Part shown: positions 22,581 through 36,443 of the stretch, piece by piece
Numbering within the stretch: position 1 is the stretch's first letter
How the letters are laid out: each line of letters starts with the position of its first letter
Assembly: GCF_020852195.1 (NCBI RefSeq)
Contig: NZ_JADZBI010000107.1
Coordinates: 1 to 36,997 of the forward strand
Source of the DNA: Hyphomicrobium sp.
GTDB taxonomy: Bacteria > Pseudomonadota > Alphaproteobacteria > Rhizobiales > Hyphomicrobiaceae
Direction: 5' to 3'
Length of the DNA stretch: 36,997 bases
Program-made: the position numbers and the translations under genes
The notes under the pieces: generated by a model
The model's database searches: none
What the model saw: the letters and a program-made list of their open reading frames with translations, nothing else
Told to the model about the DNA's origin: nothing

Positions 22581-23482
22581 TCAGGGTGTGACCAATGTTC
22601 CCGCATTCTCGGACAGGACGGCTTCGGCCTGCGATAGGGCGCCGATGCCTGCCGTTCTGCCCGTCCGTTCGACGAAATCGCATACCGCAGTGACTTTCGG
22701 TCCCATCGAGCCGCCGGCAAAAACGTGACGCCTGAGATTCCGCGCCTTGATCTGCCGAATAGGCTCAGCGCTGGCGCTCCCCCAGCCGAGATAGACGGCG
22801 TCAACATCGGTCAAGATGACAAGTCTGTCGGCGCCTAAGTTCTCGGCCAGAAGGGCTGCGGCAAAATCTTTGTCGATGACGGCCTCGACCCCGGTGAAAC
22901 GGCCGTCGGCCTCGCGTTGGACGGGTATGCCTCCACCGCCCGCGCACACCACAGTTTGACCTGCGGCAACAAGGGAGCCGATCACTGCCTGCTCGACAAA
23001 CGCGATCGGCCTCGGTGACGGGACGACGCGGCGTACACCCTTTCCATCGTACGCGAAACTCCAGTCATGTTGATTTTGCAGAGACGCAACCTCATCGGCG
23101 GCGTAGACAGGCCCGACAGGTTTCGTCGGCGTCTCGAAGGCCGGATCCTCCGAGTCGACGATGGTCTGGGTGAGGAGCGCCGCGATCGGCCAATCCGGCT
23201 GCGCGTTCTTCAGCTCCTGGGCAATGACGTAGCCGATCATTCCCTGCGACTCGGCGCCGAGCACATCAAGTGGATAGGGTGGCACAGCCTTGTAGGCATC
23301 AGCCTCAAGGGCAAGAGGCCGACCTGAGGACCGTTGCCGTGCACGATTGCAACCTCGTGATCCTGGCATGCCCGTGCCAACACGCCGGCGGCAGCGCGCA
23401 TGTTGCGGCGCTGGTTCTCGGCGGAGAGGACCTCGCCGCGCTTGAGCAAGGCATTGCCGCCGAGCGCGATGACGATCCGCAT
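22581..23482 (-). pseudogene. arcC: carbamate kinase, interrupted by a one-base frameshift
   Basis: Carbamate kinase converts carbamoyl phosphate and ADP to carbamate and ATP, the energy-yielding step of agmatine fermentation. The frame from the ATG at 23482 reads '[17 protein letters not shown]' to '[12 protein letters not shown]'. The rest, '[28 protein letters not shown]' through 'CAGGGGIPV', 'VIDKDFAAALLAENLGAD', 'ILTDVDAVY' and 'GGSMGPKV', lies in another frame to the stop at 22581. Adding one G between 23311 and 23312 (TTG-GCC-CTT instead of TTG-CCC-TT) restores a normal protein of about 300 residues. Everything else is well conserved, so this is either a recent mutation or a sequence error. 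The gene starts three bases after the agmatine deiminase stop. Confidence 0.85.
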
Positions 23483-23485
23483 CGG

Positions 23486-24610
23486 TCAGGCCGCGCCAGC
23501 GATCTGGAAGGAGCGCCGGCCGAGCGGCTCCTGCTGCGTGATGCAATGGATGTTGCCGCCGCCGAGAAGGATTTCACGCCCTGGCACCGTCACGATGCGC
23601 CGCGTGGGAAACAGTTTGGCAAGCGTCTTCTGGGCAGGACCATCGTGAGGATCGTCGAAGCGCGGCATGACGATGACGTCATTGGCGATGTAGAAGTTGA
23701 CATAGGATGCCGCTAGGCGATTACCTGCCTCGCGTGGCAACGTACCAGCCACCTTGTCTACGCCAGCCGCTTCCTCGGCCGTGATCAGAACCGGCGCCGG
23801 CACGTGGATCTTATGAATCTTGAGAGACCGGCCCCGCGCATCCGACATCCCCTTCAAACGCTCGTATGCCCCGGTGGAGATTTCATACTGAGGATCGGTG
23901 GGATCGTCCGTCCAGGTCAATACGACCTCGCCCGGCGCGACGAAGCGGCAGAAGTTGTCGACATGTCCATTCGTCTCGTCGAGATACACGCCCTTCTCGA
24001 GCCAAAGGATGGCGTCGACACTGAGATAGTCCCGCAGATACTGTTCGATCTCGGCTTTGCTCAAATCCGGGTTTCGGTTTGGGTTGAGGAGGCATTCCTC
24101 GGTCGTGAGGAGTGTTCCTTCGCCGTCGACGTCGATTGATCCGCCCTCGAGGATAAAGTCGGGTGCGTAACGGTCATCGCGTTCGAGCTCGACCACTTTC
24201 TCGCCGACCAGATCGTCCTGATCCCAAGGGAAATAAAGTCCACCGGCGAGCCCGCCCCAGGCGTTGAACTTCCAATCAACGCCGCGTACCTCTCCGGCGT
24301 CGTTGACCACGAACGTCGGTCCGCAATCGCGGATCCAACTGTCGTTGCTGGTCATCTCGACCAGGCGAATGTCGGGGTCGAGCATCTCGCGGGCGATAAG
24401 ATATTGGCCGGGCGACGCACAGACCGTCACCGGTTCACCTTGCGCGATGGCAGCCGCCACCTCCGCGAAGGCGTGTTGAGCCGGCTTGGCACCAGCCCGC
24501 CAGTTGTCAGACCGCTCGGGCCATAGCATCCAGCATCCGACATGAGGCTCCCATTCGGCTGGCATACGAAAACCGTCGTGGCGTGGGGTTGCGGTGAGAA
24601 GCTTAGACAT
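23486..24610 (-). CDS. aguA: agmatine deiminase
   Basis: 374 residues, the usual family length. The enzyme hydrolyses agmatine to N-carbamoylputrescine and ammonia. The signature segments are present: '[21 protein letters not shown]', '[12 protein letters not shown]', 'WKFNAWGG', '[14 protein letters not shown]', '[12 protein letters not shown]' and the catalytic '[11 protein letters not shown]' with Cys356 as nucleophile. It overlaps the permease gene by eight bases and is followed after three bases by carbamate kinase, so all four genes of the operon are tightly coupled. Peptidylarginine deiminase relatives share the fold, but the GGGNIHC context and the neighbours make agmatine the clear substrate. 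Confidence 0.95.
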
Positions 24611-26024
24611 TGGTCGTGACCTCCGTGGCGCTTGAGGGACGGCTGCGACGGACCAGAAGCTCCCCGACGAGAACCGTCAGCACCACGCCGCCGACGACGG
24701 AGAGCGCATAGGCGGCGTCGAACGCGTCGGGCTTGTAGATGAAGAACACGATCGCCTGCAGGATGAAGGCCATGCAAAGGACGCTGAGCGCGACCGCGAC
24801 CCGGTAGCTGCCGGGTACGCGATAGGGTCGCGGCCGGTCAGCATCGATCTGTCGAAGCTTCAGGAACGACAGGAACAGGAGGAAGTACGGAAGAAGGAAT
24901 ACGACAGACGAGAATGCGAAGATGGTCCAGAAGAGATCCTCAGTGTCCTTGGCGAGGAGCCCGTAGACGAGGAGCACGGCGCTGCTGATCACGCCGCACA
25001 ACACTGCGGAGCTGGTCGGCGTGAGGTAGACGGGATGCAGCTTGGCGAAGATCGCGGGCAGGTCGCCGCGGTTCGCGGCCTCGGCCGCAGACCTGTTGGC
25101 GCCGATGGTCCAGGTCGTCATGTTGGCAACGAAGGTGTAGAGTGCCATGGCGATCAGTACGGCGGTCAGGGCGCTGCCGAAAGTCCCCGTTCCGAATACG
25201 CGCTGGTAGGTGTCGAACAGCCCCTGGATAAGGCCGATCTCCTCCACCGGCAACGCCAGCAGAATGCCCACTGTGGCGAAGATATAGAAGAAAGCGATAA
25301 TGGCACCGGAGGTGATGATCGCCACGGGCACATCGCGTGCCGGGTTCTCCATCTCCTCGCCGGCGCCGGACATCAGTTCGAACCCAAGATAATTGTAGAT
25401 GATGACCGGAAGAAACGCGAGGCTGGCGCCCCAGCTCGGGGCCAGCGTCGCCAGGCTGAACTCGTTCGCGGCGCCATTGGAGAGCGCGTAGGCGATGCCG
25501 CCGAAGCCGAGCGCCAGCATGATGACCACCTTGAACAAGGCGCCGATGTTGGGCACCCACTTGCCGACCTCGAGCGTCACGATGTTGATGCCGACCGTCA
25601 GCCACGTCAGGGCCAGCGTGATGACGATCTTCGTCGACATGCTCATCTCCGGGGCAAGCACCTCGGAAAGAAGCCCGGCGAAAAGAATGTAAACGGAGGG
25701 CATCCAGAAGGCGACGTTGACCCACCAGAGCCACGCGGCACGGCCCGCCCACATTGATCCGAACGCACGGCGCACCCAGGCGTAGATGCCGCCCTCCTCG
25801 GTGTAGGTGCTTCCGAGCTCCGCCGTGATCAGGCCATAGGGGATGAAGAACAACACCAGTGTAAAAAGCCACCAGAAGATCGACTGCACGCCGATCGATG
25901 CCGCTGCGGCGAGCTGATCGATGACCAGGATGGCGCAGACGGTGAACAGCGTCATGTCGAGCCCGCGCAGGACCCTACGGAAGCGTCCTGCCGGCGGTGT
26001 GGGAGCCTGCGTGAGACTGGCCAT
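24603..26024 (-). CDS. aguD: APC-family permease, probable agmatine/putrescine antiporter
   Basis: 473 residues from the ATG at 26022-26024, five bases after GAAGGAGG; the track adds 57 upstream codons that overlap the previous gene out of frame. About 12 membrane helices are visible. '[26 protein letters not shown]' is the conserved helix 2 segment of amino acid-polyamine-organocation carriers, and '[24 protein letters not shown]' marks the helix 6 region. Placed between the carbamoyltransferase and the deiminase, it matches AguD, which swaps external agmatine for internal putrescine. The substrate is inferred from position; glutamate/GABA-type exchangers look similar. Confidence 0.85.
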
Positions 26025-26040
26025 GGCGGCCTCCTTCTGT

Positions 26041-27054
26041 TCAGGAATTGAGGAACGCCTCGACGCGGCCTCGGTGGTGGTCGACGAGCTCGTGCGAGGG
26101 ATGATAGAGGCGGGGATAGACGAAGTGGACGAGCAGCCCCTTCTCCGTGTGCAGCCGGTTCTCCGACTGGTCGTAGATGATCGAGCGCGGCCCATCCATG
26201 ACGGCGTCCGTCACCTCGACGCCGCGCGAGGCCGGCAGGCAGTGCATGAACTTGGCATGGGCCGGCGCGCGTGTGAGCAACGCCTCGTTGACCTGATAGG
26301 TCGGCATGAAAGCGCGCTGGCGGTCCGGGATCTCGGCCTCCTGGCCGATCCACCACCAGAGGTCGGTGTAGATGAAATCCGCGTCACTCACAGCCGCGTC
26401 GACGTCATCGGTGACCGTGAGCGATCCGCCGGATTGCGCGGCATTGGCCTCCGCGATAGCTTGCCATGCCTTTGGCGCCTGGTACTGCGGTGGCGCGGCA
26501 TGGGTGAAATGCATCCCCATCTGCGTGCAGATCATCATCAGCGAGGAGCAGACATTCGTGGCATCACCAATGAAGGTGACGCGCACCTCGGAGAGAGGCT
26601 TGCCCGAAATCCTGTGCTCGATCATCGTGAACACGTCGCACACGACCTGGGTGGGATGGTTGTAGTCCGTCAGCCCGTTGAGCACGGGAACGGTGGCGTT
26701 GACCGCCAGATCCAGCACGGTCTGGTGCTTCAGCGTGCGCGCCTCGATGACGTCGACCATGCGGCTGATGACACGCGCGGTATCGCGGACGTTCTCGCGC
26801 TGGCCCAGGTGGATTTCCCCGGGCCGCAAATAGAGGGCGTGACCGCCGAGCTTGGTCATCGCCACCTCGAACGACACGCGCGTGCGCGTCGATGGCTCCT
26901 CGAAGATCATGCCGAGCGAGGCGCCGGAGAGCAGCCGCGGGCAGGCTCGCGCCTTGTCCGCTTCCTTGAGCAGGCGGATCAGCTCGATAATGCGAAGCAG
27001 CTCTTCCCGCGTGAAATCCTGGGTATCGATGAAGTGACGCAAAGGTGTTGGCAT
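26041..27054 (-). CDS. ptcA: putrescine carbamoyltransferase (ornithine carbamoyltransferase family)
   Basis: 337 residues; GAGGA lies six bases before the ATG. The carbamoyl phosphate site 'EEPSTRTRVSFE' and 'HPTQVVCD' are present, as is 'FMHCLPASRGVEV'. Where ornithine enzymes carry the substrate motif SMG ('DVWVSMG'), this protein has 'DLWWWIGQEAE', which argues against ornithine. With agmatine deiminase and carbamate kinase in the same operon, phosphorolysis of N-carbamoylputrescine to putrescine and carbamoyl phosphate is the likely reaction. It is the first gene of the operon, and 16 bases separate it from the permease. Called aguB in Firmicutes clusters; that symbol means a different enzyme in Pseudomonas. 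Confidence 0.85.
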   Translation of the reverse strand: MPTPLRHFIDTQDFTREELLRIIELIRLLKEADKARACPRLLSGASLGMIFEEPSTRTRVSFEVAMTKLGGHALYLRPGEIHLGQRENVRDTARVISRMVDVIEARTLKHQTVLDLAVNATVPVLNGLTDYNHPTQVVCDVFTMIEHRISGKPLSEVRVTFIGDATNVCSSLMMICTQMGMHFTHAAPPQYQAPKAWQAIAEANAAQSGGSLTVTDDVDAAVSDADFIYTDLWWWIGQEAEIPDRQRAFMPTYQVNEALLTRAPAHAKFMHCLPASRGVEVTDAVMDGPRSIIYDQSENRLHTEKGLLVHFVYPRLYHPSHELVDHHRGRVEAFLNS

Positions 27055-27160
27055 TCGGCCGTCCTCTGCTGAGGCATTGGTGTCCTAGCGGCCGCATCCT
27101 TCTGAAGGAACGAGAGGTGGACGGCACAGCGTCAACGTAGTCACCGCGCCGCTGAGGTAA

Positions 27161-27174
27161 TTGATCTAGCGCAA
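27161..27174 (-). promoter_or_regulatory. FixK/FNR-type box upstream of the agmatine operon
   Basis: TTGATCTAGCGCAA fits the alphaproteobacterial FixK/FnrL pattern TTG(A/C)-N6-(T/G)CAA exactly. It lies 107 bases before the first gene's ATG, leaving room for an activator-type promoter with a leader of about 60 bases. Members of this family activate genes at low oxygen. The box is nearly symmetric, so strand is nominal. Confidence 0.55.
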
Positions 27175-27188
27175 TTAATGCTGCGCTA
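27167..27188. promoter_or_regulatory. inverted repeat overlapping the FixK/FNR-like box
   Basis: Perfect seven-base arms TAGCGCA and TGCGCTA are separated by eight bases. The overlap with the box means that a second regulator binding here could compete with the oxygen-responsive protein. Confidence 0.4.
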
Positions 27189-27493
27189 AGCCCTTCAATG
27201 GTTTTTCCACCTGCTTCCTGTTTCCCCTTGCACGCCAACGAAATGCAGGCCGTGAGATCGTTTGCGGTTGGCCGGTTCCTGTCATCTTGGGCAGAGACGC
27301 CAAATGGCCGCTCGTGACCCTGAGCCACAGTCGCGCTGCGGTTGCAGAAGGTCCGCAGTCGAACACTTGGCAGACCCACGTCCGGTCTCGTGACTTCAGC
27401 AGTCGTTGGCGTGGGCCGGTCCGACGCGAGCTTGTGACCCGTTGCGGACCTGAAACGGCGTCCGGGCTGTTGAGATCAGTGATAGGGTGCGCA

Positions 27494-28960
27494 CTACATC
27501 GCCCTAGGCGGTCCGAACCAGGTGCTCAGCGCGTCGGAGAGCCCTGGCTCCGTCTGCTCGCCTACCCAAGCCACATATCCGTCGGGTCGGATCAACACGA
27601 CGGTGGGCGCGGTGACCTCACCAAGGACAGGAAGCACCCATGTATCATCACATCCTGCGTCGATCAGCTTGACGCGATCGGCCCACGGCGTGATGTCGAG
27701 GCTGGCGGGTTCACCGAGGTTGAGCAGCACCGGCCGGGCATCGTACAGCAAGGTGAAGACCCGCAGCGGACCGTTGGCGGTGATCAAGTCGAGATCGGGC
27801 ATTCGATGCCCAAGCAGCGGATGCCCCTCACCGAGATCGTAGCGGATGTCGAGGCCCGACATCGTCGCCGTGTACCACCTGTGCGGCTCGTCCATCTTCA
27901 TCACCCCGGACATCATCTTGCGCAGGGCGTTCGTCCGGTCGTCGCCGCGGTTGAGCGCGGTGATCGCCATGGTGTGCTGGAGTACCCGCGCAGCGGCCGG
28001 GTGCCGCTCGGTCTGGTAGGTATCGAGGAGGCTTTCCGGCGAGGTGCACCCGACTACCTGCGCCAGCTTCCACCCGAGGTTCACCGCATCCTGGATCCCT
28101 ATGTTGAGTCCCTGCCCACCGGCCGGGGAATGAATATGCGCCGCATCGCCGGCCAACAGGACTCGCCCTTCCCGGTAGGTCGCAGCCTGTCGCGCCGCGT
28201 CGGTGAACCTGGAGAGCCACGTGACGTTGCGGACGCCATAGTCCGTCCCGTAGGCGGCGACGAGCGCCGCGCGAAGCTCCTCAAGTGCTGGATTGTCTCC
28301 TTGCTCGAGCCGCTGCTCCGTCACCACGCCGCCGACGCGCTTGCCGTCCTCCAGTTTGCCCAGGGCATAGATGCCCTTCTCGCCGTTGAGGATCCCCCAA
28401 ACCGGCTCCTCGGCCATCTCCGCTTCAAAGATCAGGTAGCTGATATCCGGATCCCACCCAGGGAAGTCGATGCCGGCCGCCTTGCGGATCAGGCTGCGCC
28501 CCCCGTCGCACCCGACGAGGTAGCTCGCCCGGAGCGACGCGCCGTCCGAAAGCGTTACGTCCACCCCTGTGCCGTCCTGCGCGAAGCCGGTCACCTCGCG
28601 GCCGCGATAGAACGTCACCGGCAACTCGCCGACCCAGTCGGCCAGAGTATTCTCAAACTGCTGCTGCCGCAGCCCGAGCCAATAGTTGTGCCGTGTCGGA
28701 AGGTCGCTGGAGTCGAGGACGGCCCCGGGGAACAGTGCAACCTGGTGCTTCTGGCCCTGTGAGACGAAGCGTTCGGCGATGCCGCGCTGGTCGAGCATTT
28801 CGATTGTTCGGGGATGCAACCCACGGGCGCGGGAACTCGCCAGCTCCTGGTTCACGCGCCGCTCAACAGTGGCAACGTCGACGCCCGCCAGCGCCAGTTC
28901 GCCCGCCAGCATCAACCCGGTCGGGCCTCCTCCGGAGATCACCACCGCATGGTCGGTCAT
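27494..28960 (-). CDS. FAD-dependent monooxygenase (PheA/TfdB-type aromatic hydroxylase family)
   Basis: 488 residues from the ATG at 28958-28960, which has GGAG eight bases upstream; the track adds 15 codons. The FAD-binding motif 'VVISGGGPTGLMLAGELA', the 'LVGCDGGRSLIRKAAGI' segment and the ribityl-contact motif 'GDAAHIHSPAGGQGLNIGIQDA' are intact. A thioredoxin-like C-terminal domain ends the protein ('VVLIRPDGYVAWVG'), as in the phenol hydroxylase and rifampicin/tetracenomycin-type hydroxylase branch. The enzymes use NAD(P)H and O2 to hydroxylate aromatic rings. The substrate is unknown; relatives occur in antibiotic pathways of actinobacteria, so lateral origin is possible. It stands alone. 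Confidence 0.9.
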   Translation of the reverse strand: MTDHAVVISGGGPTGLMLAGELALAGVDVATVERRVNQELASSRARGLHPRTIEMLDQRGIAERFVSQGQKHQVALFPGAVLDSSDLPTRHNYWLGLRQQQFENTLADWVGELPVTFYRGREVTGFAQDGTGVDVTLSDGASLRASYLVGCDGGRSLIRKAAGIDFPGWDPDISYLIFEAEMAEEPVWGILNGEKGIYALGKLEDGKRVGGVVTEQRLEQGDNPALEELRAALVAAYGTDYGVRNVTWLSRFTDAARQAATYREGRVLLAGDAAHIHSPAGGQGLNIGIQDAVNLGWKLAQVVGCTSPESLLDTYQTERHPAAARVLQHTMAITALNRGDDRTNALRKMMSGVMKMDEPHRWYTATMSGLDIRYDLGEGHPLLGHRMPDLDLITANGPLRVFTLLYDARPVLLNLGEPASLDITPWADRVKLIDAGCDDTWVLPVLGEVTAPTVVLIRPDGYVAWVGEQTEPGLSDALSTWFGPPRAM

Positions 28961-29231
28961 CGCAATACTCCGGCCGTCTCCGCGGCAGCCAGATCGGCCG
29001 CGCACAGCCCGCTCGTCGATAAAAACACACGCATCCAGGAACCCCCTAGCTTCGGGCTTTGGTCAAGCGGTTCTACCGGATGATCCGGGTCTTGAAGCAA
29101 GCCCCTTGCTCACCACATGTTTGGGTGGGGAGAGCGCCTTTCCGTTATTTCCGCGCCAGAATTGCGATTGCGAAGATGGCTTTGCAAATGTCGCCTTGTG
29201 GCGGGTCTGTCTCTTGAAAAGGAGGCGGACC

Positions 29232-29303
29232 ATTGACAATGATCACGAATATGAAGACCTGAAGTTGGCCCGCCGCGAACCCTGGAACAAGGGCACGCTT
29301 TAA
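29232..29303 (+). pseudogene. possible remnant of a tyrosine recombinase 5' end
   Basis: AGGAGG is followed six bases later by ATT where a start codon would stand, then a 22-codon frame 'DNDHEYEDLKLARREPWNKG' and a stop. The ending 'RREPWNKG' resembles the N-terminus of a group of alphaproteobacterial site-specific integrases. Nothing recognisable follows. If correct, the start codon has mutated and the gene has been cut short. The match is short and from memory, so confidence is low. Confidence 0.35.
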
Positions 29304-29404
29304 GGGCGGTCCTCGGATCCCGTGCTGTGGCGCTCCAGAAAAATGACACGGTTCTGACAAGCAGAGGCCTGGTGCTCTCACAGCTACCTTTTGGGATTCG
29401 GACG

Positions 29405-29418
29405 TGTTAATATTAACA
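29405..29418. promoter_or_regulatory. perfect AT-rich palindrome TGTTAATATTAACA
   Basis: A 14-base perfect palindrome 45 bases before the ATG of the small secreted protein. Position and symmetry suit an operator near the promoter of the two-gene CHAT unit; the binding protein is unknown. Confidence 0.45.
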
Positions 29419-29462
29419 GCTGGCTGCGCGTATTTTTGAATTTATTTCGATGGAGGATTGTA

Positions 29463-29846
29463 ATGCGGTCAATGGCCTACTTCTGCCTGCTTGCCATCGT
29501 CTCTGCTGCGGTTGTAGCTCTTCAAGGCTCGTACCACTCTGCTCAAGCGCAGGAAGTGATCGTGCTGGAGTCGAATGTTCCCGAGATTGAGGGCCAGCAA
29601 CTTTACACGACGATCGACCCCAACACCGACGGTCAGCCTATGATATTCAACATACCTGCGGGTCAGTCGATCACGGTGATGAAGCCTTCTGGCGCTATTG
29701 AAACGATTTCGGGGCCGCGAAGCATTGCGGCTGCCGATCTCGTGGATACCGAGGATCAGAGCGAGACTTTTAACAAGCTGGCGCAAGACATCGTGGACGG
29801 CAATCGTAACTCTTTTGGCGAATCGTCGATTTTCAATCAGCAATGA
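29463..29846 (+). CDS. small exported protein of unknown function, partner of the CHAT gene
   Basis: 127 residues from the ATG at 29463, which follows GGAGG by six bases; the track start 24 codons earlier has no ribosome site. The first 30 residues form a signal peptide ('AYFCLLAIVSAAVVALQG', cleavage near 'AQAQ'). The mature part includes 'FNIPAGQSITVMKPSGAIETISGP', a small beta-rich motif, and an acidic helix near the end. I do not recognise a named family. The stop is 21 bases before the CHAT gene start, so the two are almost certainly co-transcribed, and both are exported. It could be an anchor, inhibitor or substrate of the CHAT protein. Confidence 0.8.
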   Translation: MRSMAYFCLLAIVSAAVVALQGSYHSAQAQEVIVLESNVPEIEGQQLYTTIDPNTDGQPMIFNIPAGQSITVMKPSGAIETISGPRSIAAADLVDTEDQSETFNKLAQDIVDGNRNSFGESSIFNQQ

Positions 29847-29867
29847 ACCCGCGGGGAGCCTTGAGGG

Positions 29868-32800
29868 ATGTGTCTCTCATTGCGTCGGTTCGCGCTGATT
29901 TTGGCGATCGCGTCGCTTCTGACTGCGTTGCCCACTTTGGGTCCGTTCGCAGGCGGTCTTGACACAGTCGACGGCCTTACGCGACGTGTTCTCGAACTCT
30001 ACAAGAGCAACGAGTTCGATGAGGCTGTTCCGCTCGCAGAGCGAGCCGTCGCGCTGGCCGAAAGTAAATTTGGGCCCGAGCATTTGGAAGTCGCGACGGC
30101 ACTGAGCAACGTGGTGCTGGTCTACAAGGCGAAGGGCCGATTTGCTGATGCAGAAGGTCCAGCGCAGAGGGCTTTGGCCATAACTGAGAAGCTGCTAGGG
30201 CCCAATTTTCCCGACGTGGCCCGCCAACTGACCAACCTCGCATCGGTGTATACCGCACTTGGACGATTTGATGAGGCAGAGCAGCTTTACGTTCGCGCGC
30301 TCGCGATAGTTCAGAAGTCGTTTGGAAAGCGCTCCCCGCTTTTTGGGGCAATCTCCGGAAGTTTGGATGACTTGCGCCGCGGGCGCAAAGATCCCGATAC
30401 TCTGTCCGTCCAGTCCTCGGCTCATCGCGATCCGAACGATCCCGATCTAGCGATGAGGGATTCTGCTTCGGCAAGAATTCGGGGAAGCCAAAAACCCTCG
30501 GATGAACTCGGCGTCCTCAACGCGCAAGCTGAGAAATTATATGAGGAAGGAAGATATTTCGAGGCTGTTCCGGTTATGGAGCAAGTGTTAGCGCTGACCG
30601 AAACGTTTTACGACGCCAACCACACCGCTCTTGCCGCCGCGCTCAGTCACTTGGCAACGCTTTACCTCAATCAAGGTCGTCACGCTGATGCCGAACAGCT
30701 CTTTAAGCGCTCGCTCGCGATCACCCCTGAGGATGATGCCACCGTCAACAACTTGGCGGAGCTCTACCGTGTCGAGGGTCGCTACGCCGAGGCTGAGAAG
30801 CTCTTTGTGGGCTTGCTTGGAAAAAACCCTGAAGAGACTTTCGCGCTCAATAACCTGGCGCGCCTCTACATCACTCAGGGTCGCTACGCTGATGCCGAGG
30901 CGCTCTGCAATCGACGGCTTGCCAAAGAGCCGGATGACCCCGCCGCGCTTAACAATTTGGCCACGCTGTACCTCAACCAAGGTCGCTACGCCGATGCCGA
31001 GCCGTTCTACAGAAATGCGCTTGCTACCAACGAGAGGCTTGGCCCAGACCATCCCTCTGTCGCCTTCGCGCTAAACAGCTTGGGTACTTTGTACCGGGCA
31101 GAAGGCCGCTATGCCGACGCCGAGCCGCTCATAAAACGCGCTCTGGCGATCCATGAGAAAGGGCTTGGCGCCGACCATCCTCACACGGCCCATATCTTGA
31201 ACAACCTCGCGGAGTTGTATCGAGAGACTGGCCGTTACAGCGACGCGGCGCCCCTCTATCAACGCGCGCTTGCGATTTTTGAGCGCGCATACGGTGCCGA
31301 CCATCCCGATGTCGCTAGCGCGCTCAACAATCTGGCCATGCTCTATCGCGAGGAAGGTCTCTACACCGACGCCGAACCGCTCCACAAGCGATCGCTTGCA
31401 ATCCGCGAGAAGACCTTCGGTTCCGAGCACCCCGACGTCGCAACCGCGCTCAGTAACTTGGCCGACCTGTATCGCGAATCCGGCAGGCCCGCCGACGCCG
31501 AGTCGCTCTACAAGCGTGCGATCTCGATCTTCGAGAAGGCATACGGCCCCGACCATCCCGGCATCGCAACCGCTCTGAGTGACCTTGGCGCGATGTACTT
31601 CGCTCGTCAAAATTGGAAACAGGCGGTCGACTACTGGCGCCGCAGCACCAGCATAACGACCCGCCGCGCCGACGGCGGTACGAGCTCCTTTGGTCTGAGC
31701 CCTACTGGCAAGAAGAGGAGCGAGCCAGAACGGCTACAGAAGCGATTTTGGGGGCTCATCAAGTCGGCCTATCACCTTTACAAATCCAACTCTGGGCCGA
31801 AACTAGCAGCCGAAATATTTGAAACCACACAATGGGCACAAACTTCCGAGGCTGCCCAATCGCTTGCACAAATGGCGGCCCGCGCGGCGGGCGGAAACCC
31901 CTCGCTGGCGACCATCGTCCGCGAACGTCAGGATCTCGTGGAAGACTGGCAACGGAGAGACGCGGCAAGCGGCGCCGTTGCTACCGAGGCGCTGGAGAAC
32001 CGCAGCAAAGATGCTGCGAATGCGGCATGGCTCAATGTCATTGAAGTTCGCCTCAAAGCCATCGATGAGCGGCTGCAAAAGGAATTCCCGGATTATGCGG
32101 CTATGATGAGCCCGCGTCCGCTCACCCTCCGGCAGACTCAGACCCTGCTTGGGATCAACGAGGCGCTTGTCCTGTTTGTCGACATGCCGGAATTCAAACC
32201 CTCTGCCGAGGAGACCTTCATCTGGGTCGTTACCAGAACCGATGCACGCTGGGTCCGTTCAGATCTCGGCACCAAGGCACTTACGGAGCGCGTTGCCCGA
32301 CTCCGCTGTGGGCTGGATCGTGACGGCGAATGGACTTGGTCAAAGGAGAAGGACCGCTTCCTCGGTAAGAAAGCGGCGTGCACCGCGCTCCGGCCCAATG
32401 GCCTCAGGCACAGCGAATTGCCGCCCTTCGATCTCGCAACCGCACACGAGCTTTGGACGGCGCTCCTTGGCCAAAGTGCCGACTTGATCAAAGGCAAGCA
32501 TCTGCTCTTGGTTCCCTCGGGACCGCTGACCAGCTTGCCGTTTCAAGTACTGGTGACCGCGCCTCCGGTCGTCGACGACTTATCGACCGCGCCCTGGCTG
32601 ATCCGCGATCATGCGCTGACCGTGCTGCCGTCGGTAGCGAGCCTTGCCGCGCTTCGCCGCAACACCAATGTCTCGACGGCGCCCGAGCCATTCGTCGGCT
32701 TCGGCAATCCGGTGCTCACAAGGGACTGCGGCGAAGCCTACGTCCCCGACACCTGCCCCGGGGACAGGACTAACGTCGCCGCCACTGACGCCAGCGCGAC

Positions 32801-33500
32801 GGCTCGGTCGTCCGGGTCGGTCAACGAAGTCGCGAGCTATTTTCGCGGCGGTCGCGCCGACGTGGCGACTCTCAAGGCGAGTTTATGCCCGCTTCCCGAT
32901 ACTGCCCACGAGCTGTTGTGCGTCGCGAGAAGCCTCGGCGCGCCGGACACCAGCATCGTGCTCGGCAGGGACATGAACGAGCGCACGGTGAAGAGCATGC
33001 AACTCGACCGCTACCGCGTCATTCACTTTGCGACCCACGGGCTGCTGGCCGGGCAGACAGAGGAGCTTGCCAAGATCCACGCCGAACCGGCATTGGTGTT
33101 GTCCCCTCCCGAGATCGCGAGCGAAGAGGACGACGGGCTGCTTACGGCCTCAGAGGTCGCGGGGCTGAAGCTGGATGCTGACTGGGTGGTGATGAGTGCG
33201 TGCAACACCGCGAGCGCCGCTGCGCCCGGCGCCGAAGCGTTGTCGGGGCTCGCCAAGGCGTTTTTCTATGCGGGAGCCCGCGCGCTGCTCGTGTCGCACT
33301 GGCCGGTCAACTCATATGCGGCGACCATGCTGACCACCCGGGCATTCGCCGAGATGAAGCGCGACTCGTCTGTTGGTCGCTCGGACGCACTACGCATCTC
33401 CATGCTGGCGCTTCTAGGCGACACCGACCGCCTCTGGGCCGTGCATCCCTCTGTCTGGGCGCCTTTCGTAGTCGTCGGCGAGGGCGGCGCTGGCCAGTAA
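29868..33500 (+). CDS. exported TPR-CHAT (caspase-like) protein
   Basis: 1210 residues. A signal peptide covers about 1-30 ('RFALILAIASLLTALPTLG'). Three TPR units follow, then a linker (about 170-215), then about nine more TPR units of the 42-residue kinesin-light-chain kind ('YADAEPLIKRALAIHEKGLG', 'HPDVASALNNLAMLYREEG') to about residue 590. A helical stretch leads to the C-terminal CHAT domain (about 870-1205), a clan CD peptidase fold. Its catalytic pair is present: His1057 in 'VIHFATHG' and Cys1112 in 'WVVMSACNT', followed by 'GLAKAFFYAGARALLVSHWPVN'. CHAT proteases include separase relatives and the bacterial TPR-CHAT effectors of type III-E CRISPR systems, but this one is exported and has no CRISPR partner here. 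The likely partner is the small exported protein upstream. The target is unknown. Confidence 0.9.
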   Translation: MCLSLRRFALILAIASLLTALPTLGPFAGGLDTVDGLTRRVLELYKSNEFDEAVPLAERAVALAESKFGPEHLEVATALSNVVLVYKAKGRFADAEGPAQRALAITEKLLGPNFPDVARQLTNLASVYTALGRFDEAEQLYVRALAIVQKSFGKRSPLFGAISGSLDDLRRGRKDPDTLSVQSSAHRDPNDPDLAMRDSASARIRGSQKPSDELGVLNAQAEKLYEEGRYFEAVPVMEQVLALTETFYDANHTALAAALSHLATLYLNQGRHADAEQLFKRSLAITPEDDATVNNLAELYRVEGRYAEAEKLFVGLLGKNPEETFALNNLARLYITQGRYADAEALCNRRLAKEPDDPAALNNLATLYLNQGRYADAEPFYRNALATNERLGPDHPSVAFALNSLGTLYRAEGRYADAEPLIKRALAIHEKGLGADHPHTAHILNNLAELYRETGRYSDAAPLYQRALAIFERAYGADHPDVASALNNLAMLYREEGLYTDAEPLHKRSLAIREKTFGSEHPDVATALSNLADLYRESGRPADAESLYKRAISIFEKAYGPDHPGIATALSDLGAMYFARQNWKQAVDYWRRSTSITTRRADGGTSSFGLSPTGKKRSEPERLQKRFWGLIKSAYHLYKSNSGPKLAAEIFETTQWAQTSEAAQSLAQMAARAAGGNPSLATIVRERQDLVEDWQRRDAASGAVATEALENRSKDAANAAWLNVIEVRLKAIDERLQKEFPDYAAMMSPRPLTLRQTQTLLGINEALVLFVDMPEFKPSAEETFIWVVTRTDARWVRSDLGTKALTERVARLRCGLDRDGEWTWSKEKDRFLGKKAACTALRPNGLRHSELPPFDLATAHELWTALLGQSADLIKGKHLLLVPSGPLTSLPFQVLVTAPPVVDDLSTAPWLIRDHALTVLPSVASLAALRRNTNVSTAPEPFVGFGNPVLTRDCGEAYVPDTCPGDRTNVAATDASATARSSGSVNEVASYFRGGRADVATLKASLCPLPDTAHELLCVARSLGAPDTSIVLGRDMNERTVKSMQLDRYRVIHFATHGLLAGQTEELAKIHAEPALVLSPPEIASEEDDGLLTASEVAGLKLDADWVVMSACNTASAAAPGAEALSGLAKAFFYAGARALLVSHWPVNSYAATMLTTRAFAEMKRDSSVGRSDALRISMLALLGDTDRLWAVHPSVWAPFVVVGEGGAGQ

Positions 33501-33904
33501 CGCTCCCGCTGCCCGCTCTTGCTGACATGGACTTGCAAGCCGTGCCTACGCATTACGGTGGTGGGGAGACTGTCGACTTTTGGGACGAAGCCACCACCTC
33601 GCGCAGGTGGCGGCTCGCGGTTGCCTCAGATGATTTCAAATCATATTGTAACTTCAATAATATAGTTGTTTGCAGTTATATTTAGTTCGTCGTGTCACGT
33701 CTAGAACATTCAATTCGTTTAAATAAAGTAGAACGCTCACCTTGCAACGGGGGTGGCGCTGGGTGAAGCGGCTTCTGCGGCGCCGATTCCGATAACGATG
33801 GCGTTGATGACGATAGCGTTGGCGGAGGCGGACAAGAGAGACGGTTTGGGCTTCGTTCCTGGCTTTCGGCGCTGAGCAGGACGAAGGCCAACAGAGCAAA
33901 CATG
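33501..33904. other. intergenic region with AT-rich palindrome
   Basis: About 400 bases between the convergent CHAT and cytochrome genes. 33630-33644 is a perfect palindrome with arms ATGATTT and AAATCAT around C, followed by AT-rich sequence to about 33740. GGTGGTGG and CCACCACC at about 33558 and 33589 could form a long-loop stem. These may act in termination of the CHAT transcript. No gene is supported. Confidence 0.45.
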
Positions 33905-34378
33905 CTATTGGCCAGGCGCCTTGCCGAGATGATTGAGATAGGCGACCAGCTCCCAGATCTCCTCTTCGCTGAATACATCGCCCCAAGGTGGCATTGGGGT
34001 CGCGCCCTTTCCGCCGTCACGAATGGTTTCAAAGGCGTGATGCGGCTCCACGGGGCGACCGATGAACAACGCCGGCTCGTGACCGTGACAGAAGTCGGCA
34101 CAGGTCGAATGAAAGCGCTCTTTGCCCGCCTCGATACGGGCCGCGTCGTTGAGATTGATCGGAATGTCGCTGCTCTCCTCCTGCTCTGCCAGATTATTGG
34201 ATTTCTCTTCAGGGGGACTTTTGCCTGTCGTGGTGTCGTCGCTGGTCGTCCCCTCCGTTTCCGAGGATGGTTGGGAGAAAGGATCTTCGATGGGCGGAGG
34301 GAAACCTCCTGCCATGACGGTTACAGCCATAAAAAGAAAGCAGAGCGCGGATGCAATCTTGATGGTCGTGGCGTTCAT
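33905..34378 (-). CDS. exported c-type cytochrome with a CX3CH heme motif
   Basis: 157 residues from the ATG at 34376-34378, where a signal peptide begins ('IKIASALCFLFMAVTVMAGG'); the track start 55 codons earlier reads through hairpins. Residues about 25-80 are a Ser/Thr/Glu-rich linker. The cytochrome domain follows. Its heme site is Cys93-Ala-Asp-Phe-Cys97-His98, with three residues between the cysteines instead of two, and Met129 in 'ATPMPPWGDVF' is the likely sixth ligand. A final helix 'EEIWELVAYLNHLG' is standard for class I cytochromes. It lies 100 bases after the PQQ dehydrogenase and is the obvious electron acceptor for it. Confidence 0.88.
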   Translation of the reverse strand: MNATTIKIASALCFLFMAVTVMAGGFPPPIEDPFSQPSSETEGTTSDDTTTGKSPPEEKSNNLAEQEESSDIPINLNDAARIEAGKERFHSTCADFCHGHEPALFIGRPVEPHHAFETIRDGGKGATPMPPWGDVFSEEEIWELVAYLNHLGKAPGQ

Positions 34379-34405
34379 TGACTGATCCAAGACGTTGTTG
34401 AGCCG

Positions 34406-34423
34406 CTGAAGGGGACCCTTCAG
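34406..34423 (-). terminator. short hairpin in the dehydrogenase-cytochrome gap
   Basis: Perfect eight-base arms CTGAAGGG and CCCTTCAG around GA. It stands between the larger hairpin and the cytochrome start, so the cytochrome leader may fold into two stems. No T run follows. Confidence 0.4.
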
Positions 34424-34435
34424 TTGACGAAAGAC

Positions 34436-34459
34436 GGCGGATGGCAAATGCCATCCGCC
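34436..34459 (-). terminator. strong hairpin after the PQQ dehydrogenase gene
   Basis: Perfect 11-base arms GGCGGATGGCA and TGCCATCCGCC with a two-base loop, 19 bases beyond the dehydrogenase stop. On the transcribed strand it is followed by GTCTTTCG, only a short T run, so it may end some transcripts and let the rest continue into the cytochrome, or protect the upstream message. Confidence 0.5.
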
Positions 34460-34478
34460 GCGCTTGTTGTTGTCGGTG

Positions 34479-36443
34479 TCAGTCGACCTGTACGGCGATG
34501 AGCTCTGCGGGCACTCCTGCGCCGCCAGTGGGCACGACGACATACTGCTTGCCGTCGGCCTTGTAGGTCATCAGAGCGCCGAATGCTGCTCCGGGCAGCT
34601 TGAGCTCGCTGACCAGCTCTCCCGACTTCGCATCATGAGCGTAGAGCATGGGCTCGGGCTCATCCTTTGTCGCTTGCGCTACGATGGCGGTGCCGCGGTT
34701 AGACAACCCAGTGACGCTGTACGTGCCATCCGGCGCCAGGAACAAGATGTTCTCGGTCAGCACGAGGTGGCTCATGCGCGGCACGCCCAAGCGATCGAGG
34801 TTGAGATGCTTGATCTCCGGGTTGTCGACCGGGCCGCGTCCTGCCGGAATGCGCCAGAGGTGCTCGCCAGTGTTCATGTCGATCGCAGTGACCGTCGAGA
34901 ACGGCGGCTTGAACAGCGGCAGTCCCTTGGGGCCGCCGACGCCCGCCCAGGTTCCCGTGTAGTCGTAAGCCGATCCGATCTCCTTCTTCAGCTTGGTTGC
35001 GAACGGCAGCATGTACGAGTGCACGTAGAGCACGTTCGTTTTCGGGTTGTGCGGAGCGCCGACCCAGCTTGCGCCACCGAGAAGACCTGGAACGAGCAGC
35101 GTGCCCGCCTTCTCGGTTGTCGGAGGCGTGTAGAGCGGACCGTAGTGATAACGATTGAGGATCTTCTTTGCCTCCTCCCGCAGCTCCGGCGTGAAGTCGA
35201 TGAGATCATCCTCGGTCGCACCCTGCTGGATGTAGGGTAGCGGCTTGCTCGGGAACGGCTGCGTCGGCGAGGATTGCTCTCCCGGCACGGTCGACTGCGG
35301 GACAGGCTTTTCCTCGATGGGCCAGATCGGCTCGCCGGTGAGCCGGTCGAAGGCGAATACAAAGCCCTGCTTTGTCACCTGCACAGCGGCTTTGATGTCC
35401 TTGCCGTCGACCTTGAGGTTCATCAGATTCGGTGCCGTGGGCAGATCGTAGTCCCACAAGCCATGATGGGCGATCTGATAGTACCAGGCGATCTTTCCGG
35501 TTTTGACGTCGAGAGCCACGAGCGACTCGCCGAACAGACCGTTGCCTTTGCGATGACCGCCGAAGAAGTCGTTGGCCGGCGTGGAAAGCGGCAGATAGAC
35601 TATCCCCGCCTCCTCGTCGCAACCGGGGCGCGCCCACATGTTCATGCTGCCGGCCGTTTTCCAGGAGTCTCCCTCCCAGGTCTCGTTACCAGGCTCGCCT
35701 TCCTGCGGAGGAGCGTGGAAGACCCATTTTTCCTCTCCAGTCTTTACGTCGAACCCGCGGACGTCGCCGGGCGCATGCGATTGCAGCGGCGGTCGCCCGA
35801 TCGCAAATGAATCGAGAATGAGGACACTAGGGACAACCACGCCACCGCAAACGATTGCCGGCGAGGCGACCATCATATGCTCACGCAACACTGGCCTTCT
35901 GAGGCCCTTCGTGAGGTCAATGCGGCTCTTGTCGCCCCAGCTTTCGATGGGCTTTCCGGTCTTGGCATCCAATGCGATCAGGTAGGCATTGCCGGTGCCG
36001 ACAATAATTCGCTTGTCGTCGCCATCTTCCCAATACGTCAGACCGCGGCTGAGGAAGCCGAGGTTCGGCGGGCTGCCATCGTCATAAGTGCGCGGATCAT
36101 AGGTCCACAATGTTTTGCCCGTCGCACCGTCGATCGCAGACACAAAATTCATCGGCGAGGACGAGTAGAGGATGCCATCGATAGCAAGCGGCGTGCCTTC
36201 GTTGACCCACGTGCGCAGGTCCGGGTTGCTTGCGGCTAGTTCATTGTCGGGCATCGGCCAGCGCCATGCGACCTTCATCCCCTTCACGCTATCCTTGGTC
36301 ACAGTCGGCGCCGGACTGTACTTCGACGCTGTCTTGTCGCCGTTGTATTCCCGCCAGTTGCCTTGCGGATCTGCGTATGCCGCAGCTCCCAATGCGGGGA
36401 TAACCAATGCGCCCAACAGCGCAGGTCGCAGCCTTCGTGTCAT
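34479..36443 (-). CDS. periplasmic PQQ-dependent dehydrogenase (membrane-glucose-dehydrogenase-like)
   Basis: 654 residues; GGAGG lies eight bases before the ATG. A signal peptide ends near 'AAAYA-DP'. The mature protein begins 'GNWREYNGDKTASKYSPA' and contains beta-propeller repeats ending in tryptophan motifs ('DGATGKTLWTYDPRT', 'DVKTGKIAWYYQIAHHGLWDYDLPTAPNL', 'DRLTGEPIWPIEEKPVPQS'). This layout matches the quinoprotein domain of membrane glucose dehydrogenase and quinate dehydrogenase, but the five N-terminal membrane helices of those enzymes are absent, so it should be soluble in the periplasm. It lacks the adjacent-cysteine ring of methanol dehydrogenases as far as I can see. Electrons probably pass to the cytochrome encoded next. 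Substrate unknown. No PQQ synthesis genes are in the window. Confidence 0.9.
   Translation of the reverse strand: MTRRLRPALLGALVIPALGAAAYADPQGNWREYNGDKTASKYSPAPTVTKDSVKGMKVAWRWPMPDNELAASNPDLRTWVNEGTPLAIDGILYSSSPMNFVSAIDGATGKTLWTYDPRTYDDGSPPNLGFLSRGLTYWEDGDDKRIIVGTGNAYLIALDAKTGKPIESWGDKSRIDLTKGLRRPVLREHMMVASPAIVCGGVVVPSVLILDSFAIGRPPLQSHAPGDVRGFDVKTGEEKWVFHAPPQEGEPGNETWEGDSWKTAGSMNMWARPGCDEEAGIVYLPLSTPANDFFGGHRKGNGLFGESLVALDVKTGKIAWYYQIAHHGLWDYDLPTAPNLMNLKVDGKDIKAAVQVTKQGFVFAFDRLTGEPIWPIEEKPVPQSTVPGEQSSPTQPFPSKPLPYIQQGATEDDLIDFTPELREEAKKILNRYHYGPLYTPPTTEKAGTLLVPGLLGGASWVGAPHNPKTNVLYVHSYMLPFATKLKKEIGSAYDYTGTWAGVGGPKGLPLFKPPFSTVTAIDMNTGEHLWRIPAGRGPVDNPEIKHLNLDRLGVPRMSHLVLTENILFLAPDGTYSVTGLSNRGTAIVAQATKDEPEPMLYAHDAKSGELVSELKLPGAAFGALMTYKADGKQYVVVPTGGAGVPAELIAVQVD

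What the first reader, a model, noticed from the sequence alone, without database searches (positions are those of the whole stretch)
29463..33500. Two-gene exported CHAT protease unit
A small secreted protein and a 1210-residue TPR-CHAT protein, both with signal peptides and 21 bases apart, share one promoter region with a perfect palindrome. The catalytic His1057 and Cys1112 are intact. Known TPR-CHAT effectors act in the cytoplasm; a periplasmic pair would be a different system, perhaps surveillance or toxin-antidote.
Basis: partly seen in the sequence, partly recalled or inferred. Interest (0 to 1): 0.7.

Follow-up and report, generated by a model that had tools for sequence, protein, structure and literature searches.

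The report
Exported small protein beside CHAT protease
A bacterium related to Hyphomicrobium carries an exported caspase-like (TPR-CHAT) protein next to a small exported protein; the small protein belongs to a widespread, unannotated family that usually sits beside membrane cyclic-nucleotide receptors (CHASE2) and often beside caspase-like proteases, so the pair looks like a stripped-down piece of a little-studied envelope signalling module rather than a toxin and its antidote.

Summary
The two genes are real: 29463-29846 (127 aa) and 29868-33500 (1210 aa, TPR-CHAT, His1057/Cys1112 intact), 21 bases apart, both with Sec-like N-termini. The small protein, called SM here, matches no Pfam or NCBIfam model. 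Profile searches place it in a family found in 27/398 genomes of the order, 36/385 of the class, and in other classes. Of 58 SM loci, 46 hold a CHASE2 receptor gene (usually fused to a cyclase), 31 a caspase-fold protease (23 C14, 9 CHAT) and 27 both. CHAT/SM/CHASE2-cyclase operons recur, and the window CHAT's close relatives lie in CHASE2-SM-CHAT-C14 operons in Hyphomicrobiaceae. The window is therefore a reduced, CHASE2-less form. But export of TPR-CHAT looks common in this order (40/65 by a strict heuristic), SM is not CHAT-specific, and toxin-antidote is not supported. Long SMs have two folded domains joined by a flexible linker with an invariant Arg (39/39). I propose SM is a periplasmic adaptor or substrate linking protease and CHASE2. 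No activity, interaction or localisation was tested.

The parts
29405..29418 (.). perfect palindrome TGTTAATATTAACA, 44 bases before the SM start
   Evidence: sequence; one of 6 perfect 14-bp palindromes in the window; unique in the genome
29452..29457 (+). ribosome-binding-like GGAGGA before SM
   Evidence: sequence
29463..29846 (+). SM gene: 127-aa exported protein, short form of an unannotated family
   Evidence: no Pfam/NCBIfam match
29463..29549 (+). predicted Sec signal peptide of SM (residues 1-29, AQA|Q)
   Evidence: sequence; same feature across the family; helix 3-22 in model
29553..29747 (+). SM N-terminal beta domain (about residues 31-95)
   Evidence: profile match to family and AF2 model
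29805..29807 (+). Arg115, the position aligned with the invariant linker Arg of the family (VDGNR here, LGAxR in most members)
   Evidence: alignment A3
29868..33500 (+). TPR-CHAT gene, 1210 aa, predicted exported
29955..31667 (+). TPR region (about residues 30-600)
   Evidence: Pfam TPR_12/TPR_10
32436..33482 (+). CHAT domain (residues 857-1205)
   Evidence: Pfam CHAT 1e-49
33036..33038 (+). catalytic His1057
33201..33203 (+). catalytic Cys1112

Best explanation
The window pair is a reduced form of an envelope signalling module made of (i) SM, a Sec-exported small protein, (ii) an exported caspase-fold protease (TPR-CHAT here, C14 in many relatives) and (iii) in most relatives a CHASE2 membrane receptor, usually with a cytoplasmic adenylate/guanylate cyclase. 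Shown by sequence: the two genes, the SM family, its statistical linkage to CHASE2 and to caspase-fold proteases, and the operon orders. Inferred: SM and the protease meet in the periplasm, SM is the adaptor or substrate of the protease, and the state of SM (bound or cleaved) sets the CHASE2 signal. In the window the CHASE2 gene is absent from the locus, so SM would act directly as regulator or substrate of the CHAT protein, or work with the genome's single unlinked CHASE2-cyclase. The output of the window pair is unknown.
For: SM family recognised by profile without using its neighbours. 46/58 SM loci have CHASE2, 31/58 a caspase-fold protease and 27/58 both; CHAT alone in 9/58 against about 0.2 expected from CHAT density. 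Tight same-strand operons: CHAT-SM gap 3, 3, 15 and 18 bases and SM-CHASE2 gap -4 to 31 in L156, L171, L174, L176, with a cNMP-binding protein gene beside the cyclase in three of them. Nearest relatives of the window CHAT: Hyphomicrobium (CHAT domain 64% identical) and a Hyphomicrobiaceae MAG, both CHASE2-SM-CHAT-C14; they fall in one clade with the window (99/83). In 59 CHAT loci CHASE2 occurs only in two, L027 and L031, and both have SM. SM proteins carry signal peptides, and the long forms have two invariant Cys. AF2 of a long SM shows two folded domains and a low-confidence linker that holds the invariant Arg. Precedents: the TPR-CHAT Csx29 cleaves a partner encoded in its locus within a flexible loop (PMC10028731); CHASE2 cyclases of S. 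meliloti respond to a signal relayed by another envelope protein, NsrA (PMC13001267); the window genome's own CHASE2-cyclase lies near a FecR-domain gene.
Against: No binding, cleavage or localisation data. The window SM lacks the C-terminal domain and its linker motif is degenerate (VDGNR). The invariant Arg is also kept in SMs with no protease nearby, so it may bind CHASE2 or be structural rather than a cleavage site. 27 of 58 loci have no detected protease within the fetched stretch (several contigs end early). The window genome's only CHASE2 gene is on another contig. Two of five members of the window's CHAT clade have no SM found beside them.
Confidence: 0.45

Rival explanations
1. SM is mainly a CHASE2 accessory protein (a FecR-like periplasmic sensor or ligand partner). 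The proteases are loosely associated members of the same envelope or cell-surface loci, and the window SM is a leftover after CHASE2 loss.
For: CHASE2 is the commonest neighbour (46/58); SM-CHASE2 loci without protease keep the Arg motif; FecR genes accompany CHASE2 receptors in the window genome and in Burkholderia (PMC5192318).
Against: Window and L030 keep SM with CHAT but no CHASE2 nearby; CHAT linkage is far above chance; the window SM is an intact ORF with RBS and signal peptide.
Confidence: 0.3
2. SM is the inhibitor (antidote) of a toxic exported CHAT protease.
For: Small gene directly upstream of the protease gene, 21 bases apart, both apparently exported.
Against: Very few of the surveyed CHAT loci have SM; the window genome has three other CHAT genes and one SM; SM is often present with no protease; no PADLOC match beyond generic TPR-type hits.
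Confidence: 0.07
3. Chance neighbours: an ordinary exported TPR-CHAT gene with an unrelated small secreted gene in front.
For: Same-genus genomes lack SM, and most CHATs lack it.
Against: Same order (SM directly before CHAT) in two relatives within the same CHAT clade, and CHAT-SM operons in further genera; 9 CHAT linkages against about 0.2 expected.
Confidence: 0.1

Closest known systems
TPR-CHAT protease Csx29 of the type III-E CRISPR system (Craspase), with its substrate Csx30
   Same: TPR plus CHAT architecture; Csx30, encoded in the same locus, is cut in a flexible loop (PMC10028731)
   Different: Cytoplasmic and RNA-activated; no CRISPR gene was seen among the window neighbours examined, and the window CHAT looks exported
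CHASE2-domain adenylate cyclases CyaD1/CyaD2/CyaK with NsrA of Sinorhizobium meliloti
   Same: CHASE2-cyclase coupled to another envelope protein that relays a signal (PMC13001267)
   Different: NsrA is an outer-membrane beta-barrel, not SM; no caspase-fold protease is described there; the window lacks the CHASE2 gene
FecR-domain/CHASE2 operons (Burkholderia biofilm-regulating operon)
   Same: Exported FecR-domain protein encoded next to a CHASE2 receptor (PMC5192318)
   Different: SM matches no FecR model in Pfam; the output there is a histidine kinase; no protease
Alphaproteobacterial metacaspases/orthocaspases (Peptidase C14)
   Same: Caspase fold; common in the class (PMC3501461); cleave after basic residues (PMC6426788); neighbours of SM in 23 loci
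   Different: The window enzyme is CHAT, with Ser rather than Asp two residues before the catalytic Cys, so Arg specificity is not implied

Membership tests
CHAT protease family (PF12770) | CHAT domain above curated cut-off | tested here: met
   170 bits against cut-off 24
CHAT protease family (PF12770) | His-Cys catalytic dyad | tested here: met
   His1057 in HFATHG, Cys1112 in SACNT
CHAT protease family (PF12770) | proteolytic activity | not testable with these tools
   needs an assay
Type III-E CRISPR TPR-CHAT (Csx29) | encoded beside Cas7-11/crRNA, Csx30, Csx31 | tested here: not met
   the neighbours scanned (22581-36443) are metabolic genes; N-terminal signal peptide
SM family (defined here) | profile match of the N-terminal domain | tested here: met
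   5.4e-18 to a family profile that includes it; P0001 alone finds an SM in a non-CHAT locus at 3e-4
SM family (defined here) | C-terminal Ig/FN3-like domain with two invariant Cys (long form) | tested here: not met
   absent; the window has the short form
SM family (defined here) | LGAxR linker motif | tested here: inconclusive
   Arg115 aligns but the sequence is VDGNR
SM-CHASE2-protease module | CHASE2 gene in the locus | tested here: not met
   none in the window; one unlinked in the genome
SM-CHASE2-protease module | caspase-fold protease gene in the locus | tested here: met
   CHAT 21 bases downstream
FecR protein (PF04773) | match to FecR model | tested here: not met
   no Pfam match for P0001 and no FecR match for 39 long SMs at E 0.1
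Toxin-antidote pair | small gene present with its protease partner and the reverse | tested here: not met
Known anti-phage defence system | PADLOC match beyond generic TPR | tested here: not met

The most novel reading that the evidence does not exclude
SM is the dedicated periplasmic substrate of caspase-fold proteases: cleavage at the invariant linker arginine separates its two domains and switches a CHASE2 cyclase, giving a caspase-to-cyclic-nucleotide signalling pathway across the bacterial envelope, of which the window pair is a short variant.
Probability: 0.15. Interest if true: 0.85.

Novelty: new variant of a known kind. Interest (0 to 1): 0.5.

Why it matters
Exported TPR-CHAT and C14 proteins are numerous in Alphaproteobacteria, and I found no paper that assigns them a substrate or signal. 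A conserved, unannotated partner family that ties them to CHASE2 cyclases gives a concrete handle: a candidate substrate or regulator, a candidate receptor and a measurable output (cyclic nucleotide). It would make the role of extracytoplasmic caspase-like proteases directly testable.

Tried and rejected
P0001 alone as query found almost nothing; the family only appeared after seeding a profile with weak hits. Toxin-antidote: rejected on co-occurrence. Defence system: no PADLOC match, metabolic neighbours. Palindrome as operator: unique in the genome, not pursued. FecR membership: no Pfam match. Foldseek of the window SM model: no match; of the long SM: only a generic Ig/FN3-like C-domain (best MalQ, 2e-4). 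Arg-specific cleavage by CHAT: CHAT partners lack the Asp two residues before Cys that many C14 partners have (that this Asp sets basic-P1 specificity is my own knowledge of metacaspases and MALT1), and the Arg is kept without a protease nearby, so cleavage is left as a hypothesis. CHAT domain against PDB sequences: nothing at 0.01.

Full report
Observation. The two genes lie as described: 29463-29846 (127 aa) and 29868-33500 (1210 aa), same strand, 21 bases apart. The large protein has many TPRs and a C-terminal CHAT domain at residues 857-1205, with His1057 and Cys1112 in the usual HFATHG and SACNT motifs. Both N-termini read as Sec signal peptides; I had no signal-peptide predictor. The palindrome TGTTAATATTAACA at 29405-29418 is real but is one of six perfect 14-bp palindromes in the window and unique in the genome, so I give it no weight.

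The small protein. P0001 matches nothing in Pfam or NCBIfam and as a single query finds one weak relative in 100 relatives (3e-4). That relative, and hits from it in loci fetched around CHAT genes, gave a five-row alignment whose profile finds matches in 27 of 398 genomes of the order and 36 of 385 of the class; a wider profile finds it in 26 of 299 genomes of the phylum, other classes included. The 39 long members aligned match no family with any consistency. The typical member is about 240 aa: signal peptide, N-terminal domain, linker, C-terminal domain with two invariant Cys. Short forms (window, L027, L031, L131, L132, L145) lack the C-terminal domain. The linker is variable (mean top-residue frequency 37%) except for the motif LGAxR and its variants, whose Arg is 39/39. 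AlphaFold2 gives two confident domains and a low-confidence linker around that motif (residues 96-98 below 50). For the window protein the model has a similar N-terminal strand order, a helix at 99-112 and a loose tail with Arg115 (mean pLDDT 76). Foldseek finds an Ig/FN3-like C-domain and nothing for the window protein.

Neighbourhood. In 58 loci found by SM profile, 46 contain CHASE2, 23 C14, 9 CHAT, 31 any caspase-fold protease and 27 CHASE2 plus a protease. From a little over 100 CHAT matches in 100 relatives about 0.2 CHAT loci are expected by chance. Recurrent orders are C14/CHASE2-cyclase/SM (L136, L137, L141-L144, L146, L148, L167-L169, L172) and CHAT/SM/CHASE2-cyclase (L156, L171, L174, L176), with gaps of mostly a few to some tens of bases. 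In L156 and L171 the gene before CHAT encodes an MBG-repeat protein, and in L156, L171 and L174 a cNMP-binding protein follows the cyclase, so the likely output there is cyclic-nucleotide signalling. Some of those CHATs look like lipoproteins (lipobox-like LSAC, LTAC, LAAC).

Where the window fits. The CHAT domain of a Hyphomicrobium MAG is 64% identical to the window's, and its operon is CHASE2-SM-CHAT-C14; a Hyphomicrobiaceae MAG has the same order. A tree groups the window with these two and with two CHATs for which no SM was found (99/83). SM linkage appears in several CHAT clades (at least four changes forced by supported branches). The window locus has no CHASE2; the genome's only one is on another contig, near a FecR-domain gene. 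The most economical reading is a reduced or orphaned SM-CHAT pair.

How general is export? Of 65 CHAT proteins in the surveyed loci 40 pass a strict Sec-like heuristic, and more look exported by eye.

Mechanism. I favour an envelope module in which SM links protease and receptor. By analogy, Csx29 cuts a partner encoded in its locus within a flexible loop (PMC10028731), CHASE2 cyclases of S. meliloti take their signal through another envelope protein (PMC13001267), and CHASE2 with an exported FecR-domain protein is a described gene pairing (PMC5192318). Orthocaspases cut after basic residues (PMC6426788), and many C14 partners keep the acidic residue before the Cys, whereas CHAT partners have Ser there. 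Since the linker Arg is also kept in SM-CHASE2 loci without a detected protease, cleavage at that Arg is a hypothesis only; binding to CHASE2 explains it equally well. For the window, where the motif is degenerate and CHASE2 is missing, I can say only that SM is probably a regulator or substrate of the CHAT protein.

Literature. Searches for CHASE2, CHAT, FecR and metacaspase combinations returned no description of SM or of this module; the library is open-access only. The CHASE2-metacaspase links I found are single-protein fusions in cyanobacteria (PMC3501461, PMC2853523).

Limits. Genes were called by a simple script; fetched stretches were about 14 kb and several contigs end early; E-values of home-made profiles that include the tested loci are not independent. 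SM was recognised without using its neighbours, but three of the five seed rows come from CHAT loci, as does the window itself.

Noticed in passing
L012-L025 (genome G002, same genus): 17 CHAT matches in one 3.7-Mb genome, most looking exported and several side by side (four in 20 kb of L019), while the other same-genus genomes searched have none.
   Followed up: partly
L156:4274-14000, L171:3759-14000: MBG-repeat surface-type protein, lipoprotein-like CHAT, SM, CHASE2-cyclase and cNMP-binding protein in one tight operon; reminiscent of a regulated protease acting on an adhesin.
   Followed up: partly
L152:2380-4404, also L138, L140, L161, L164: SM-like stretch inside longer ORFs; in L152 with a C-terminal DUF4384 domain.
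   Followed up: no
L230:5863-9418 (own genome, contig C77): The genome's only CHASE2-cyclase lies near a FecR-domain gene on the opposite strand.
   Followed up: partly
L233 (G945): Two SM genes in tandem with no CHASE2 or caspase-fold gene found near.
   Followed up: no
window 22581-27054, - strand: Agmatine deiminase, putrescine carbamoyltransferase, carbamate kinase and an amino-acid permease: a likely agmatine catabolism cluster.
   Followed up: no
window 33905-36443, - strand: Cytochrome c and a PQQ-type dehydrogenase downstream of the pair, opposite strand.
   Followed up: no
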